The position numbers and the translations under genes are program-made. 64,000 nucleotides of DNA from Malachius bipustulatus (taxonomy: Eukaryota > Arthropoda > Insecta > Coleoptera > Melyridae): contig OU342635.1 of NCBI GenBank assembly GCA_910589415.1, positions 40,884,929-40,948,928 on the forward strand. The letters are read 5' to 3'. Position 1 is the first letter of the stretch, and each line of letters starts with the position of its first letter. The notes beneath the pieces were generated by a model. The model did no database searches. It worked only from the letters and a program-made list of their open reading frames with translations, and was not told the DNA's origin. Shown here one piece after another: positions 37,681 to 62,539 of this stretch.

Positions 37681-37832
37681 TTTTCGAGAAATAAATAAAT
37701 ATATTTATATAAATAATAATAAAAAAAATTAACTCAGCTGTATGTTGAAAAACAAAGAAGAAAAATAACGGGCTTGTTACGATCGGGCTTTATGGCAGAC
37801 AACAAAACAGAGCTACGCAGAAACCTTCCAAA

Positions 37833-37878
37833 GCCACACGCAGTTGTTTCGGTCTCATTATGACCTCATCAGTGTGGC
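37833..37878 (-). ncRNA. Degenerate type I hammerhead ribozyme
   Basis: On the minus strand the order is GCCACA (stem I), CTGATGA core, GGTC-ATAATGA-GACC (stem II), GAAA, CAACTGCG, TGTGGC (stem I partner). Stems I and II pair fully. The cleavage-site triplet reads GCG instead of a permitted (N)UH, so U16.1 and the cleaved nucleotide are substituted. The motif is very probably an inactive fossil. Its sequence differs from the array at 55649-57412. Confidence 0.55.
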
Positions 37879-50410: not shown

Positions 50411-50503
50411 CTAATTTTATTCATTTCAATTTTCAATAAAATGTCATCATGATAATATTGAAAAAAAAAAATTAAAGCAAAAAATGGGAAAATAACACTC
50501 CAC

Positions 50504-52061
50504 CTTTGGTGTTTGGTTGCATCTTCAAATCGTCCTCGATCTTCTCACTGGCCATCGCTTGGGCGTCCCTGAACAATTTCAAATCGTACTCCGGGACGAA
50601 GTTCATTAGATCTGGTTCGTGGTTCTTGTCCAGGAGTGGTTTCTGATCGTCGGCAGGCTCGCTCTTAAACTTGATCCGAGAGTCTTTAATTTTCTGCAGA
50701 TACAGCTTCTGATCCTGGATCACTTGGTTCCTCGGAGACTTCTTGAACACGTCCAGGGCCTTCTTGCGAAACTCCTCGCGCTTCCTCCGTTCGATCGCCT
50801 CCTCCCTGCAGAGCGCCTGAGTCAGATTGTGGTACGTGGGGCATGCTTCGAGCGTGAAATGCTTCTCGTACTTCCCGCTGAGATGACCGGAACTCTCGCA
50901 GCCTTCCAGGGGGCACTTACGTTCTTCTATGACGTGCGTCTCGTTCAGACGAGACTTCCCGTCGTTGCGTTTGCTGTTTTTCGTTTTACCTTTGCTGACG
51001 ATCGGGGCCTTCTTCACCGGGGACCGGCTGAGAGATCGTTTGGTGCTTTCGGTGTCTGAGTCGGTGTCGGAGTAAACGGTTTTACCCAGGAGGTGCTTCG
51101 ATTTTCTTGTACTAGCCGATCGGGTTAACTTCCTTGTAGCAGCAATTTGTTGTTTGGATTTGTTCTGATCGTCGTTTTCGGAGTCCGAGTTATCCTCCTT
51201 TGCAGTGACGGTGGGTTTATTGATGGGTTTTTTGGTGGGTTTCTTGGGATCTTCTGATGTATCGCTACTATCGCTATCGGAGCTGCTGCTGGAATCGCTA
51301 GTTGAAGACGTCGAGCTCTCAGAGCTCCCCTTCGGTTTAGATTTTTCGCATTTCTTTTCGACCGGTTTAATTTTCTCAACGGCTCTAACCGATGCTTTCT
51401 GTCTCGGTTTAGGCAGAACTGTCGGTTTAGAGGGACCTTTAGCGGGACTCTTTGAGTCACCCTCGGAATCTGAGCTGTTCTCGGGGGAGAAAATGCTCTT
51501 CTTTTTATTGGGATCGTTTTTAGCACTGGCGATCGCTCTTGGTGTTCCTTTCGCTTTAACTTTCGTGGTCGGCGGTGCTTTGTTGGCGTTCTGCTTCGGG
51601 GGTTTCTCGTTTGACAATCTCGGTTTCGGAGGTTGTTTCGGGGGTGCAGTAACGGCGACTGTTGCGCTAGCTTTAGGTTTAACTGGAGCTTTCCGCTTAG
51701 CCTGTTGTTTGGCTAGCACGCCTTTAGCATCTTCTTCTTCTTCCGATGAATAAATGTTAGTTTTAGCAGGTTTTGCAGTTTTGACCGGCTGCGCTTTCGC
51801 TTTAACCGTCGGTTTGATATCGGAGGATTTTGTCGAGGGGTTTGATTTTGGACCCTCAATGCTTTTTCGCGCGGTTTTTGTTAACACAGCTGCAGGTTTC
51901 TTGTTCTCAGGGCTGGACTGGTTTTTGGTGGTTTTCGTAGGTTCCTGAGACGATGAAGAATCAGTGTCACTGGAAGAGGATGAGCCCGAGCCACTTGAAG
52001 ATGAACTGGAACTTGAGGAGTCACTGGTTGAACCGGAGGTTGATTCGGTTGAGCTGCCGGT
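50504..52061 (-). CDS. chm: MYST histone acetyltransferase (KAT7/HBO1 type), exon 2
   Basis: A 1558-base exon encodes residues 7-525 plus one base. The acceptor is GCAATTTTCAG|ACCGG and the donor CCAAAG|GTGGAG. The first 380 or so residues are low-complexity: serine/aspartate tracts near 18-45 and 250-280, and lysine/proline-rich stretches with several SDSE/SDTD casein-kinase-like sites. No domain was seen there. At 389-413 lies the CCHC zinc finger of KAT7/KAT6 relatives (CPLEGC...GHLSGKYEKHF...C). A charged helical segment (about 425-470) follows, then EYDLKLFRDAQAMASE (about 498-513), a motif conserved just before the MYST domain. The N-terminus is longer than in human KAT7. The stretch upstream of 52061 is read as intron, not coding, because of the acceptor. 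Confidence 0.9.
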
Positions 52062-52166
52062 CTGAAAATTGCCCTTAATTTGAATTTGTTGCGTTCGAGG
52101 CAGTGTGTTGTGCATGCTGACTGTGGTAACTTTCCTAAAGGATTTAACAATTCGATTTTAGCTTAC
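52062..52166 (-). other. chm: Intron 1 of the KAT7/chameau gene
   Basis: A 105-base intron with donor AAAAAG|GTAAGC and acceptor TTTTCAG|ACC. Both exon borders are phase 0. Confidence 0.75.
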
Positions 52167-55326: not shown

Positions 55327-55388
55327 AGGGTACCTGTATTACCGACACTAGGGCTAGTAAGAATCAGTGTCGGTAATACAGATACCTT
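55327..55388 (+). ncRNA. miRNA-precursor-like hairpin (candidate)
   Basis: AGGGTA-C-CTGTATTACCGACAC pairs with GTGTCGGTAATACAG-A-TACCTT: 21 base pairs with one mismatch and one G-T pair around an 18-base loop. This is the size of a short miRNA precursor, but it could equally be a tiny fold-back repeat. Confidence 0.35.
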
Positions 55389-55636: not shown

Positions 55637-55648
55637 ATGCTTCATTTT
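55637..55648 (+). repeat. Left 12-bp target-site duplication
   Basis: ATGCTTCATTTT, identical to 57413-57424, borders the hammerhead array. Confidence 0.8.
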
Positions 55649-55858
55649 TGCATATTAAAAAGCCGAAGTATACTCAAAAGTCACAACAAACCGTAGGTAG
55701 GTAGGTCTTAATGAGTATAAAGACAAATCAATAGCCTGTCGTATTGGAGTCGGGTTTTAACCCATCGTCCTGACAGTTGTCAAGTCTGGAGCGCCCGAGA
55801 ACCCAAATAAAGAGTTTCAGACTCAGGCAGCAACACACATCCAACCAGACTACCAAAA

Positions 55859-55905
55859 GCACGGACGGCCGTTTCGGTCTCATTAGACCTCGTCAGATAG
55901 CGTAC
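55859..55905 (-). ncRNA. Hammerhead ribozyme motif, copy A (with 4-nt insertion)
   Basis: Minus strand: GTACG, CTAT insertion, CTGACGA, GGTCT-AATG-AGACC, GAAA, CGGCCG, TC, CGTGC. The insertion lies between stem I and the core and would probably weaken or stop cleavage. Confidence 0.8.
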
Positions 55906-56289
55906 TATATTGGAGAGTCCGGAAGGATATGAATCGCTGCATGAATCGAAAACCCTATATGGAATCTCATTCAACCGGTTACCAGTGACCTCGAGACAGA
56001 GCGACATCTATCAAGAGAAACAACAGGCTCCCAGCAAAACAAAACTCCAGTGTGTATTATGGGTTGCAGACACTCCAGGGGCTACGAGACTGACATCAAA
56101 TATGCATATTAAAAAGCCGAAGTATACTCAAAAGTCACAGCAAACCGTAGGTAGGTATAGGTCTTAATGAGTATAAAGACAAATCAATAGCCTGTCGTAT
56201 TGGAGTCGGGTTTTAACCCATCGTCCTGACAGTTGTCAAGTCTGGAGCGCCCGAGAACCCAAATAAAAGAGCGCCGAGAATCCAATATA

Positions 56290-56332
56290 GTACGCTGACG
56301 AGGTCTAATGAGACCGAAACGGCCGTCCGTGC
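56290..56332 (+). ncRNA. Hammerhead ribozyme, copy B (canonical)
   Basis: Stem I GTACG (56290-56294) pairs with CGTGC (56328-56332; one G-U). The core is CTGACGA, stem II GGTCT/AGACC with AATG loop, then GAAA. Stem III is the self-complementary ACGGCCGT (two pairs plus tetraloop, or a dimer). The cleavage site is GTC|C at 56327/56328. All invariant core positions are kept. Confidence 0.9.
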
Positions 56333-56739
56333 TTTTGGTAGTCTGGTTGGATGTGTGTTGCTGCCTGAGTCTGAAACTCTTTATTTGGGTTCTCGGGCGC
56401 TCCAGACTTGACAACTGTCAGGACGATGGGTTAAAACCCGACTCCAATACGACAGGCTATTGATTTGTCTTTATACTCATTAAGACCTACCTACCTACGG
56501 TTTGTTGTGACTTTTGAGTATACTTCGGCTTTTTAATATGCATATTTGATGTCAGTCTCGTAGCCCCTGGAGTGTCTGCAACCCATAATACACACTGGAG
56601 TTTTGTTTTGCTGGGAGCCTGTTGTTTCTCTTGATAGATGTCGCTCTGTCTCGAGGTCACTGGTAACCGGTTGAATGAGATTCCATATAGGGTTTTCGAT
56701 TCATGCAGCGATTCATATCCTTCCGGACTCTCCAATATA

Positions 56740-56786
56740 GTACGCTATCTGACGAGGTCTAATGAGACCGAAACGGCCGTCCGTGC
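56740..56786 (+). ncRNA. Hammerhead ribozyme motif, copy C (with 4-nt insertion)
   Basis: Same as copy B but with CTAT between stem I (GTACG) and CTGACGA. The predicted site is at 56781/56782. Confidence 0.8.
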
Positions 56787-57197
56787 TTTTGGTAGTCTGG
56801 TTGGATGTGTGTTGCTGCCTGAGTCTGAAACTCTTTATTTGGGTTCTCGGGCGCTCCAGACTTGACAACTGTCAGGACGATGGGTTAAAACCCGACTCCA
56901 ATACGACAGGCTATTGATTTGTCTTTATACTCATTAAGACCTACCTACCTACGGTTTGTTGTGACTTTTGAGTAGGTATACTTCGGCTTTTTAATATGCA
57001 TATTTGATGTCAGTCTCGTAGCCCCTGGAGTGTCTGCAACCCATAATACACACTGGAGTTTTGTTTTGCTGGGAGCCTGTTGTTTCTCTTGATAGATGTC
57101 GCTCTGTCTCGAGGTCACTGGTAACCGGTTGAATGAGATTCCATATAGGGTTTTCGATTCATGCAGCGATTTATATCCTTCCGGACTCTCCAATATA

Positions 57198-57240
57198 GTA
57201 CGCTGACGAGGTCTAATGAGACCGAAACGGCCGTCCGTGC
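57198..57240 (+). ncRNA. Hammerhead ribozyme, copy D (canonical)
   Basis: Identical to copy B over the 43-nt core and helices. Predicted cleavage is at 57235/57236. Confidence 0.9.
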
Positions 57241-57412
57241 TTTTGGTAGTCTGGTTGGATGTGTGTTGCTGCCTGAGTCTGAAACTCTTTATTTGGGTTC
57301 TCGGGCGCTCCAGACTTGACAACTGTCAGGACGATTTAAAACCCGACTCCAATACGACAGGCTATTGATTTGTCTTTATACTCATTAAGACCTACCTACC
57401 TACGGTTTGTTG

Positions 57413-57424
57413 ATGCTTCATTTT
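57413..57424 (+). repeat. Right 12-bp target-site duplication
   Basis: ATGCTTCATTTT, identical to 55637-55648. Confidence 0.8.
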
Positions 57425-59581: not shown

Positions 59582-59664
59582 GTAAGTTAAAAAAACTCAT
59601 GAATGGTTCATGAGTATTTAATTTAATACATTAACACCCTACAATTGGTTGATTGATTGTTCAG

Positions 59665-62413
59665 AGTAGTTAATATAAACCTTGGTAATTCCAGAGGATG
59701 GTTGATGGGTACGAAATCGCAGATCGAGAAGCAGCTGACGGTCGCGATGCAGCCGGCTGAGCCGATGGGCTGCCGATTCGGTCTGTGCGACATGAGACGG
59801 ACGGGCCTGAGGGTGATCCTGTCGCCGGACCACCGGCTGGGCGCCGTCTCGGACGCCCTCGGTCGCGTCATGCTGATGGACACCTTCCGGGGGACCATCC
59901 TGAGGATATTCAAGGGCTACAGGGAGGCGCAATGTTCGTTCTTGCAGGTACCGCAGGAGACCAAATCTAGCAAGACCCACTTTGGCAACAAGGTGGCCCT
60001 GTTCCTGGTCATATACTCCCCGAAGAAGGGAACGGTCGAGATATTCACGGTGCAGCAGGGATCCAAGGTGACGACGTTCACCGCCTCCAAGCACAGCAGG
60101 CTGCTGTACGTTAATTACGGGCTGATGGGGTACGAACGGGCGACCAAGTCGAGGTATGTCTGTCAGTTCACGACCGTTTTTATCGATAACGACGGGTTGG
60201 TTAAGGAGATCGTGGTCCCGTTCCATTTCGCCCTGCCCGAGAAAAATAATAAACGAGCGAAAGATATTCATCTGTACAAGAAACTGAGGCAGTCGATTAA
60301 GAACGAGAGTGAGAGTGATCCCGGGAAGCTGTCGGAGGAAGCATATAAAGCGTGCACCGAGCTGCAGACGATGGAGATAATGACTCAGACTGTCGAGATG
60401 CTCATTACTAATAAAACCGTGTCCGGCGATGTTATAATGAGATGCGTCGAATATTTTATTGGAAGATTTAAGGAAGAGCAACTAGAAAAAAATGAAGAAG
60501 GAGGAGAAGAAGAGGCGGTTGTTGAATCGAGCGGTTTACGGTTGTTGTGTGAAAATATTAGAGACTTGTTAGGGTTCTATTTATATGTAACTAGTAGTGT
60601 TAGAGTAGTAGAGGAAGGTAATAGTTGCATCATTAGTAGTAGTACCAGTGCTAGTACTAGTGGTAGTGGTGATAGTAGTAGTAGTAGTGTAGTTGTTGAT
60701 ACTGATAGTGAGAAAAATGTGTTAAAAAATACAAAAATAACATTAGGTGCTAAAGAATTGAGTAATTTACAGACATTAATAGATTTAAATGTAAATTTAA
60801 ACGTAACTGATAAGGATAAGAAGAGCGAAGCGAGAGTATTGTTTGCCGATCAGGAGGAGTTTTCCGTCTCCGATCTCCTATCTCTGTTCGTTCTGAATTC
60901 AAGCGACGGGAATAAACTTAAAGCGAATATCGATACAGGGAAACTATTCAAAACTTCCGAGGTATTCTTCAAGAAGTTCATCACCGAACCGGATGAATTG
61001 GTAAACACCCATGAAACCTTAGAGAGCGTAGTTAGTAAAAGTAGAATCACCACAAAAGACTTATTCAAATTAGTCATAAATTATTGGGTAAATCGTTCGT
61101 TAGATTCGTATGTAGACATAGAAATAGAGAAAGAAATGAATAATTTATACAGCGTAATACACACCATCGTTAAGATAAGTGATTGTTCAGAAATAATCGT
61201 AGATTATAGCGAAGTGTCCGGATTTTGGTCCGAAATTAGGGAGATCCTAGCAGAATCCGCTAAACCGTTCCCGGCGTTAACCGCTGCGATCGTAAGCAAG
61301 CTGGTCGCCCATAATATTGAAATGGAAGCAAACTCCGGAACGACCGATCAATCTGGTTCCGGTCTGGAAGACGAATCAATTGAAGTCCTATCACAAGAAA
61401 ACTGCGAGTGGACTCTCCTGATCGGGAAGTTGGAAGACATTTCGCTGTTAAATATAATTCTCTCTAAGAAACCGGCATCGACCGACTGCACCTTGCCACC
61501 GCTAAATCACGACACCGTCAATGTTAGTCTGAATTACGTCTTAGAAAACGGAAAAGGCTCGGTTAGCGAGCTCGTCTCTAAATGGTTAACGTCGATCGGC
61601 GTGAACCCTTACAACATCGTAGTAAACGATCGCATACACGCTCAAAAGCAAAACTCTACTCAGGAAGAAGACGAAGAAGCCCTAGAAGACATCCCGAAAG
61701 AAAAAATCAATCAAGTCAAGTCGCAAACCGTATTCAATCATCTAAACTTGATGAGATCTGAGTTTCCTTACAGTCTAGAGCCGAGCAGGCTCCTAGCGAA
61801 CATGTGCTGGGAGTACTGTCTAGCCTGGCAGAAGGATGTGCAGAATTTGGGCAACCTCGAAGCCTCAATGAAATGTCTCCGAGAGATAACGAGTCCACAC
61901 ATCCTGCAGGGGTTGCACAATTTAATCTGGAGCACGCATTTGAAAGTCCTATTCGAGAACGCCTCGAAATTGATCAATAAGGTCGGGAAGCTCCCGAAGG
62001 AGCGTTTCTGTCGCCAAGACACCGGACTCGCCGATTATCAAGTCACCCTTTTCATAGAGATTTGCACGAATTTCCTGGACGGTTTCCTCGACGTCGTTCA
62101 GGCAAGCTATAACACTCCGAAAACGCCCCTCAAGTACGAGCAGTTGTGGGAGAACGGGACGCAGCAGCCGCTCGTTGAGCTGGCTCAGCAGCACTCGCAA
62201 ATCAATTACGAGCTGCTGATGTTACATTATCAGTTGAGCGTGTGCTTGCAGATGATGACGACGTTCTTCATAAAGCAATCGAAACCGATTCAGAACCTGT
62301 TCGATTCCTCGTTGTTGTCCCTCTTCTTTAGCGATCTCCAGAGGAAAGTCGAGCTCGACCTCAGGAAGACCAACACCAAGCTCAATTTTACCCGGACTGA
62401 GTTCCTGGTCAAG
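59665..62413 (+). CDS. Rab3GAP2: Rab3GAP2, exon 5 (large exon; gene continues)
   Basis: About 916 codons in one exon, residues 300-1215. Landmarks in order: GWLMGTKSQIEK, RFGLCDMRRTGLRVILSP, LGRVMLMDTFRGTILRIFKG, VALFLVIYSPKKGTVEIFTV, VVPFHFALPEKNNKRAKDIH, then helical C-terminal-domain segments such as CLPREIT-like and NKVGKLPKERFCRQDTGLAD. The protein is the regulatory partner of the catalytic RAB3GAP1; together they stimulate Rab3 GTP hydrolysis and act as the Rab18 exchange factor at the ER. A serine-rich insertion (about residues 610-650, AGT repeats) is not in vertebrate proteins. Two in-frame acceptors exist (59665 and 59695). The donor GTCAAG|GTAATA ends the exon at K; about 200 residues should follow beyond the window. 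Confidence 0.93.
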
Positions 62414-62539
62414 GTAATACCACTATTTTATTAACTCGCTTTCTTGTCTGTCTGTCCATGCAAATCTTGCTATCGATTTTAAAGTAACTTTTTGAAGAGT
62501 TGAAGACTTGACCTTGACTGACTATTTAGATCAAATTAT

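What the first reader, a model, noticed from the sequence alone, without database searches (positions are those of the whole stretch)
55649..57412. Hammerhead-ribozyme retrozyme concatemer in an insect intergenic region
Four copies of a type I hammerhead sit in 454-bp tandem units with no coding capacity. In copies B and D all invariant positions are present (CTGACGA, GAAA, GTC|C) and stems I and II pair. Stem III is a loopless self-complementary ACGGCCGT, the kind expected to cleave well as a dimer. Known precedents are animal retrozyme-type elements, Penelope-like elements and the Dolichopoda hammerhead satellite. A dedicated 454-bp family in this lineage may be undescribed.
Basis: partly seen in the sequence, partly recalled or inferred. 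Interest (0 to 1): 0.9.

Follow-up and report, generated by a model that had tools for sequence, protein, structure and literature searches.

The report
Beetle retrozyme with PLE-style insertion ends
This is a small non-coding jumping element in a beetle that carries a self-cutting RNA motif, and its copies end in the same two-site pattern as Penelope-type retrotransposons in that genome, which suggests whose enzyme moves it and how.

Summary
Confirmed and extended. Window 55649-57412 is one insertion with a 12-bp target-site duplication (TSD), built of ~450-bp non-coding units with type I hammerhead cores. It is not simply tandem: the left arm (55649-56267) is inverted, the right arm (56281-57412) direct. 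Rfam Hammerhead_1 matches the four cores only below its gathering score (25.9, 25.9, 19.5, 19.5 vs 34 bits). The 28-nt core occurs 586 times in the host genome, probably a cucujiform beetle, reversed-pattern control 0. Forty insertions in 39 loci were mapped. Of 26 with arms on both strands and a TSD of 12 bp or more, 25 have one outer end near unit 180 (A) and the other near 217 (B), on opposite strands; none is A/A or B/B. Of nine other two-armed insertions five fit, three do not, one is cut off. Penelope-like elements (PLEs) of the same genome behave alike: 40 of 41 classifiable insertions have one short and one 'tailed' end. Units within an insertion are nearly identical across both arms. 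Best reading: a retrozyme copied by PLE machinery from one circular or multimeric RNA, primed by both target strands at two RNA sites. RNA cleavage, circles and PLE action were not tested.

The parts
55637..55648 (.). left target-site duplication ATGCTTCATTTT
   Evidence: 12-bp identity with 57413-57424 at the exact element ends
55649..56267 (-). left arm, inverted: unit 53 at the centre to unit 219 (site B, the tailed end) at the outer end
   Evidence: BLAST map of the unit dimer, inverted repeats, TSD-corrected end
55858..55902 (-). hammerhead core, copy A, with a 4-nt insertion at the base of stem I
   Evidence: RF00163 19.5 bits, below the gathering score; variant list
56268..56280 (.). 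centre junction: 13 nt that match neither arm in register
56281..57412 (+). right arm, direct: unit 408, two full units, then unit 1-180 (site A)
56289..56333 (+). hammerhead core, copy B, equal to the family consensus; putative cleavage after 56327
   Evidence: RF00163 25.9 bits, below the gathering score
56743..56787 (+). hammerhead core, copy C, with the same 4-nt insertion as copy A; putative cleavage site after 56781
   Evidence: RF00163 19.5 bits
57197..57241 (+). hammerhead core, copy D, equal to the family consensus; putative cleavage after 57235
   Evidence: RF00163 25.9 bits
57413..57424 (.). right target-site duplication ATGCTTCATTTT

Best explanation
The element is a non-autonomous retrozyme of the animal, non-LTR kind, most likely mobilised by a Penelope-like retrotransposon (PLE) of the same genome. 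Inferred steps: arrays are transcribed, hammerheads cut the RNA into units, and units are ligated into circles; the PLE protein binds the RNA and cuts the target with a ~12-bp stagger; both free 3' ends prime reverse transcription of the same kind of RNA, one starting at site A (~unit 180), the other at site B (~unit 217); both cDNAs run toward the 5' side of the RNA, often through several units, and their growing ends are joined in the middle. That leaves head-to-head arms, scattered centre junctions, a TSD and exactly one 'tailed' end per insertion. Shown from sequence: the arms, the TSDs, the A/B end pairs, near-identity of units within an insertion, and the same end rule in PLEs of this genome. 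Not shown: RNA cleavage, circularity, the PLE protein as the enzyme, the order of events.
For: A/B ends in 25 of 26 two-armed insertions with TSDs of 12 bp or more, 0 A/A, 0 B/B. The same one-short-one-long rule in 40 of 41 classifiable inverted insertions of four PLE families; two PLE insertions read directly. A second, unrelated retrozyme family with one end near 76-79 and the other near 224-227 in 3 of 3 loci. PLEs are present: GIY-YIG matches in long ORFs (150 scored), RVT_1 in one copy, minimal hammerheads downstream of the ORF in six of seven fetched regions. Units within an insertion differ at a median of 2 positions, also across arms, vs 7 between loci; loop variant G29A in all 6 hammerheads of L025 and all 4 of L035, on both arms. 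Precedent in vitro: the Anolis PLE cuts and extends both strands and starts at two adjacent internal RNA sites (PMC11167929, parts 1-3 of 4 read). The 450-nt RNA is highly self-paired: z -9.66 against shuffles; one-sided changes keep a predicted pair in 75 and break it in 26 cells, slid controls keep 25-50 and break 55-87.
Against: No sequence kinship between the unit and PLE tails: one of 18 tests at p 0.007, not significant after correction, and that one for the other retrozyme family. L013 has an end at 147 in place of A. Three two-armed insertions without TSD do not fit as mapped: L018 (216/205), L019 (188/306), L029 (180/244). In the 319-bp family the two sites lie ~148 nt apart, not 30-40. 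In PMC11167929 the start sites did not differ between strands in vitro. The window's own units are not identical: a 4-nt insertion alternates along the arms, which a monomer circle does not give; L031 mixes variants too. No compensatory two-sided changes in the predicted pairs (0), and the lower variability of the hammerhead columns is not significant (4 of 58 vs 56 of 392, p 0.15).
Confidence: 0.68

Rival explanations
1. Same two-site priming by PLE machinery, but the template is an uncut linear multimer transcribed from an array, not a circle. The hammerhead would then serve something else.
For: Units differ along the arms in the window, L029 and L046 in a way that suggests templates of two, three and four units. 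In PMC11167929 (part 2) hammerhead mutants of a PLE did not lower insertion in vitro.
Against: Most insertions look like copies of one unit sequence on both arms; a homogeneous source array could give that too. A dimer circle with one dead hammerhead also explains the window.
Confidence: 0.35
2. Fold-back or self-priming: one cDNA is made by target priming, then its end folds back and copies itself, giving the inverted arms (self-priming is the idea offered for PLE palindromes in PMC3846280).
For: Head-to-head arms are of nearly identical sequence. Inner ends lie within 10 nt of each other in 2 of 32 cases, and mean inner-end distance is a little below shuffles (94.7 vs 110.9, p 0.07).
Against: A fold-back copy cannot run past the first arm's start site, so A/B ends on opposite strands in 25 of 26 do not fit. 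Most inner ends are far apart.
Confidence: 0.06
3. Mobilised by another non-LTR element (a LINE) with twin priming, the likeness to PLEs being coincidental.
For: Animal retrozymes were said to be possible clients of LINEs or PLEs (PMC7229834, part 4). No sequence kinship with PLE tails was found. LINEs of this genome were not searched.
Against: Twin priming starts the second cDNA at variable internal sites (recalled), whereas here both ends are fixed. PLEs of the same genome show the same rule.
Confidence: 0.12
4. An ordinary satellite DNA spread by unequal exchange and recombination, the hammerhead being a passenger.
For: Tandem units exist, and L029 and L046 show higher-order periodicity.
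Against: Short dispersed insertions with TSDs of 12 bp or more and fixed ends; a spliced-mRNA copy inside one insertion. Array sizes were seen only in the fetched loci.
Confidence: 0.03

Closest known systems
Animal non-LTR retrozymes (Cervera and de la Pena 2020, PMC7229834; parts 1-4 of 6 read)
   Same: Type I hammerhead in short non-coding tandem units (150-450 bp quoted), low G+C, long TSDs when present, co-occurrence with PLEs, highly self-paired RNA.
   Different: Head-to-head arms, fixed two-site ends and 12-bp TSDs are not described in the parts read. Expression and circles, shown there for coral, mussel and axolotl, are untested here.
Penelope-like elements (PMC3846280 passages; PMC11167929 parts 1-3 of 4)
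   Same: Head-to-head insertions, 3' tail of 30-40 nt on one end, TSD, A+T-rich target, hammerhead near the ends.
   Different: No coding region in the unit and no sequence kinship with the PLEs of this genome. PLE hammerheads here have a minimal stem III. A. vaga TSDs quoted are 8-10 bp.
Dolichopoda pDo500 hammerhead satellite (PMC2837043, PMC2808323; listing and start of abstract only)
   Same: Insect repeat with a hammerhead.
   Different: Described as a satellite DNA family of several hundred bp; here short dispersed insertions with TSDs. No sequence comparison was made.
Plant LTR retrozymes (PMC4918200; listing only, and as described in PMC7229834)
   Same: Non-autonomous, hammerhead-bearing, thought to move through circular RNA.
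   Different: Type III hammerheads, LTRs and 4-bp TSDs there; none of these here.

Membership tests
Animal non-LTR retrozyme | Type I hammerhead in each unit | tested here: met
   Full-length RF00163 alignments but below the gathering score; 57-nt consensus unchanged in 128 of 161 copies of the fetched loci, some of the rest cut by junctions.
Animal non-LTR retrozyme | Short tandem units of ~150-450 bp without coding capacity or LTR/PBS/PPT | tested here: met
   Units mostly 450-451 nt (78 of 89); 0 Pfam families for the longest ORF; PBS and PPT not searched for.
Animal non-LTR retrozyme | TSD longer than 4 bp | tested here: met
   12-15 bp in 26 of 35 two-armed insertions, 21 of the 26 exactly 12.
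Animal non-LTR retrozyme | Self-cleavage of the RNA | not testable with these tools
   Needs in vitro transcription; the lone 68-nt copy does not fold as a hammerhead in its minimum-energy state.
Animal non-LTR retrozyme | Abundant circular RNA of unit length | not testable with these tools
   No RNA data held.
Animal non-LTR retrozyme | PLEs with minimal hammerheads in the same genome | tested here: met
Penelope-like element (as a member) | ORF with RT and GIY-YIG endonuclease inside the element | tested here: not met
   No such ORF in the element or recurring in the 39 loci read.
Penelope-like element (works like one) | Head-to-head arms with one tailed and one untailed end | tested here: met
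   25 of 26 TSD-bearing two-armed insertions; PLEs of the genome 40 of 41.
Satellite DNA | Long arrays without TSD or fixed ends | tested here: not met
   In the fetched loci only; longest arm seen ~10 units.

The most novel reading that the evidence does not exclude
PLE-type integration is a two-primer reaction: the two 3' ends of one staggered cut each prime the RNA at a different one of two fixed sites, so every insertion gets exactly one tail, head-to-head arms and an end-joined centre. Retrozymes carry such a two-site element plus a full hammerhead and so hijack the PLE machinery with circular or multimeric templates. This would explain the 'optional' tail and inverted copies of PLEs and name the mobiliser of animal retrozymes.
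Probability: 0.55. Interest if true: 0.82.

Novelty: new variant of a known kind. Interest (0 to 1): 0.66.

Why it matters
Who mobilises animal retrozymes is left open in the papers I read, with PLEs named as likely candidates (PMC7229834, PMC7761336). How PLEs come to leave inverted copies with a tail on one end is also unsettled there (PMC3846280, PMC11167929). The one-tail rule, seen here in two retrozyme families and four PLE families of one genome, ties both questions to one mechanism and predicts the start positions of reverse transcription on a 450-nt RNA.

Tried and rejected
Full-length PLE carrying this unit as its pLTR: considered because C1:17721536-17727182 has arms ~3.8 kb apart; rejected, since the interior has a 987-aa gag-pol-like ORF (RVT_1, RNase H) and the same reading at both of its edges, as LTRs give. 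Sequence kinship of units and PLE regions: blastn gave nothing better than E 0.004, on the opposite strand; of 18 local-alignment tests one had p <= 0.05 (319-bp family vs the 841-aa PLE, p 0.007), not significant after correction. Difference in length between A and B arms: 28 pairs, p 0.17. IMG/VR scan for the 28-nt core: 0 exact matches. Genome-wide ends of the 319-bp family: the listing stopped before the ~79 ends, so only 3 loci count. RF04128 MIR8562 on both strands of L056 is below its cut-off and lies in an inverted repeat; not pursued.

Rows dropped: 14 of the 40 insertions (five without arms on both strands, nine two-armed without a TSD of 12 bp or more; their ends are), and a spurious short window hit at 37796-37875. 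In one search, seven loci were left out of the arm-length test and two of the centre test. In one search, six clusters not of the form minus..plus, and single matches, were not counted; class limits were set after seeing the end positions, and each of the four lists is capped (40 candidates scored of 51 to 110).

Full report
What is there. Window 55649-57412 lies between two copies of ATGCTTCATTTT. Tandem Repeats Finder sees 2.5 copies of a 454-bp unit on the right; the left part is the reverse complement of the same unit (inverted arms of 487 nt, 100%). With unit position 1 set just after the putative cleavage site GTC|C, the left arm runs on the minus strand from unit 53 at the centre to unit 219 at its outer end, and the right arm from unit 408 to unit 180, with 13 nt between them.

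The ribozyme. Rfam gives no hit at gathering scores in the whole window. With the threshold lifted, Hammerhead_1 matches all four cores over its full length (25.9, 25.9, 19.5, 19.5 bits; cut-off 34). The 28-nt core occurs 287 + 299 times in the host genome with up to 2 mismatches, against 0 + 0 for the reversed pattern. Over the fetched loci the 57-nt hammerhead is unchanged in 128 of 161 copies, some of the rest being cut by junctions; hammerhead columns vary less than the rest of the unit, but not significantly (4 of 58 vs 56 of 392, p 0.15). The unit RNA is highly self-paired (z -9.66; circular energy -167.5 kcal/mol, 69% paired). One-sided changes keep a predicted pair in 75 cells and break it in 26, against 25-50 kept and 55-87 broken when partners are slid; there are no two-sided compensatory changes.

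The host. The RAB3GAP2-like ORF at 59657-62434 (Pfam) has its best named relatives in beetles (Rhamnusium bicolor 54%, Anoplophora glabripennis 52%, then Phaedon, Aromia, Brassicogethes), so this is probably a cucujiform beetle. The assembly has 544 Mb in 52 contigs.

The family. The listing (212 matches, cut short) held 38 clusters besides the window; I fetched all 38 that I read from it and mapped the unit on 39 loci with 40 insertions. The set leans to high-identity, hence young, copies. Thirty-five insertions have arms on both strands; in each the minus arm is left of the plus arm. The one plus-then-minus neighbour pair is between two separate insertions in L040. Five insertions show one strand only by BLAST.

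The ends. Of the 35, 26 have a TSD of at least 12 bp (21 of them exactly 12; 83% A+T). Their TSD-corrected outer ends are at unit 172-182 (A) or 214-219 (B), except one. Twenty-five are one A plus one B (13 with A left, 12 with B left); none is A/A or B/B; L013 has B plus an end at 147. If the two ends chose independently and evenly, 25 of 25 mixed pairs would have a chance of about 3e-8 (hand arithmetic). The other nine two-armed insertions: L015, L032, L035, L044 and L045 have A/B ends by BLAST; L018, L019 and L029 do not fit as mapped (216/205, 188/306, 180/244); the first copy in L040 is cut off by the fetched stretch. Of the five one-strand insertions, L041 and L043 seem to have a second arm of only ~9-12 nt of the B end (by eye); L016, L028 and L036 are unresolved. 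My reference unit has a 4-nt insertion between A and B, so the interval is ~33 nt in the common 450-nt unit.

The same rule in PLEs. The genome holds 150 scored GIY-YIG matches (a lower bound), many in ORFs of 823-855 aa and in tandem or inverted pairs; a 220-aa stretch from the middle of one copy matches RVT_1. Hammerheads with a minimal stem III lie downstream of the ORF in six of the seven regions fetched. Queries from the hammerhead past the tail, for four PLE families, show match ends in two main classes each: ~117 and ~160, ~105 and 141, ~123 and 177, ~108 and 146 nt; there are a few others, notably four at 163 in the 848-aa family. Of 46 clusters with a minus-strand left end and a plus-strand right end, 40 pair a short with a long end, 1 is long/long and 5 could not be classed. 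For two insertions of the 841-aa family I read both ends and saw the tail on one only. A second hammerhead family (319-bp unit, Hammerhead_1 58.7 bits, 260 matches) has one end near 76-79 and the other near 224-227 in 3 of 3 loci, with 12-13-bp TSDs; its two sites are much further apart.

One template per insertion. Among 89 full units, units of the same locus differ at a median of 2 positions within an arm (115 pairs) and between opposite arms (25 pairs, 9 identical; mean 7.0, raised by L040, which holds two insertions), while units of different loci differ at a median of 7. The loop variant G29A is in all six hammerheads of L025 and all four of L035, on both arms; L031 is mixed. The window is an informative exception: the 4-nt insertion alternates (absent, present, absent on the right arm; present on the left). 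A circular or linear dimer with one dead, uncut hammerhead would give that pattern; this is inference from one case. Unit differences in L029 and L046 hint at templates of three and four units.

The centre. Thirty-five centre junctions lie at scattered unit positions, mostly with overlaps of up to 12 nt or fillers of up to 19 nt; L013 has 759 nt and L029 maps with a 57-nt overlap. Inner ends of the two arms are within 10 nt of each other in 2 of 32, and their mean distance is slightly, not significantly, below shuffles (p 0.07). Fold-back of one cDNA predicts near-equal inner ends and a second arm that cannot pass the first arm's start, so it does not fit. L013 carries between its arms a complete, intron-less TRAPPC2-like coding region (PF04628, E 1.2e-50). 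The likely parent gene lies on C6 in two exons ~685 bp apart, 98-99% identical. A template jump from retrozyme RNA to a spliced mRNA would explain this, although no poly(A) is seen at the junction and both arms stop at nearly the same unit position (346 and 348).

Mechanism and literature. The PLE of Anolis cuts and extends both target strands in vitro and starts reverse transcription at two adjacent internal RNA sites, the interval being the 'tail' (PMC11167929, parts 1-3 of 4). There the start sites did not differ between strands; here each insertion uses both, one per strand. PMC3846280 (passages) describes a tail 'optionally present' on one of the inverted pLTRs and suggests self-priming. 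Retrozyme papers propose PLEs as likely mobilisers; I saw no end data in what I read (PMC7229834 parts 1-4 of 6; PMC7761336 passages). My searches of the open-licence library listed no title or abstract on retrozyme end pairs or inverted retrozyme insertions; I did not open most listed papers, and subscription papers, including the PLE papers of 2014, 2017 and 2021 cited there, were not available.

Verdict. By the features tested it is a retrozyme with PLE-type insertion anatomy. The new part, as far as I could see, is the two-site, one-tail rule shared by two hammerhead families and four PLE families of one genome. The RNA steps and the PLE protein's part remain to be tested.

Noticed in passing
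L013:1789-2547 (C14:41151288-41152046): A complete intron-less TRAPPC2/sedlin-like coding region sits between the two inverted retrozyme arms, inside one TSD; the two-exon gene is on C6.
   Followed up: partly
L054-L056; C1:2206015 and many other places: A second hammerhead family with a 319-320-bp unit, scoring 58.7 bits with Hammerhead_1, 260 matches listed or counted, also in inverted pairs.
   Followed up: partly
C11 of G000 (84 kb), C2:60807070-60830523, C3:53638669-53655452: Tandem arrays of PLE copies at ~3.3-kb spacing; on C11 the array switches from minus to plus strand between 20235 and 26056.
   Followed up: no
L009:3619-7018: A Gypsy-like LTR retrotransposon (987-aa ORF with RT and RNase H) nested in a retrozyme copy.
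   Followed up: yes
L029 and L046: Long one-armed arrays whose unit variants recur about every three (L029) or four (L046) units.
   Followed up: partly
L041:1974-2780: An 808-bp stretch of unknown nature interrupts the plus-strand units at unit ~165.
   Followed up: no
window 55330-55386: A short inverted repeat (GGTACCTGTATTACCGACACT ... AGTGTCGGTAATACAGATACC) just left of the insertion, seen by eye.
   Followed up: no
window 50472-52157 (-) and 59657-62434 (+): Neighbouring host ORFs: one with a C2HC zinc finger and one matching RAB3GAP2.
   Followed up: partly
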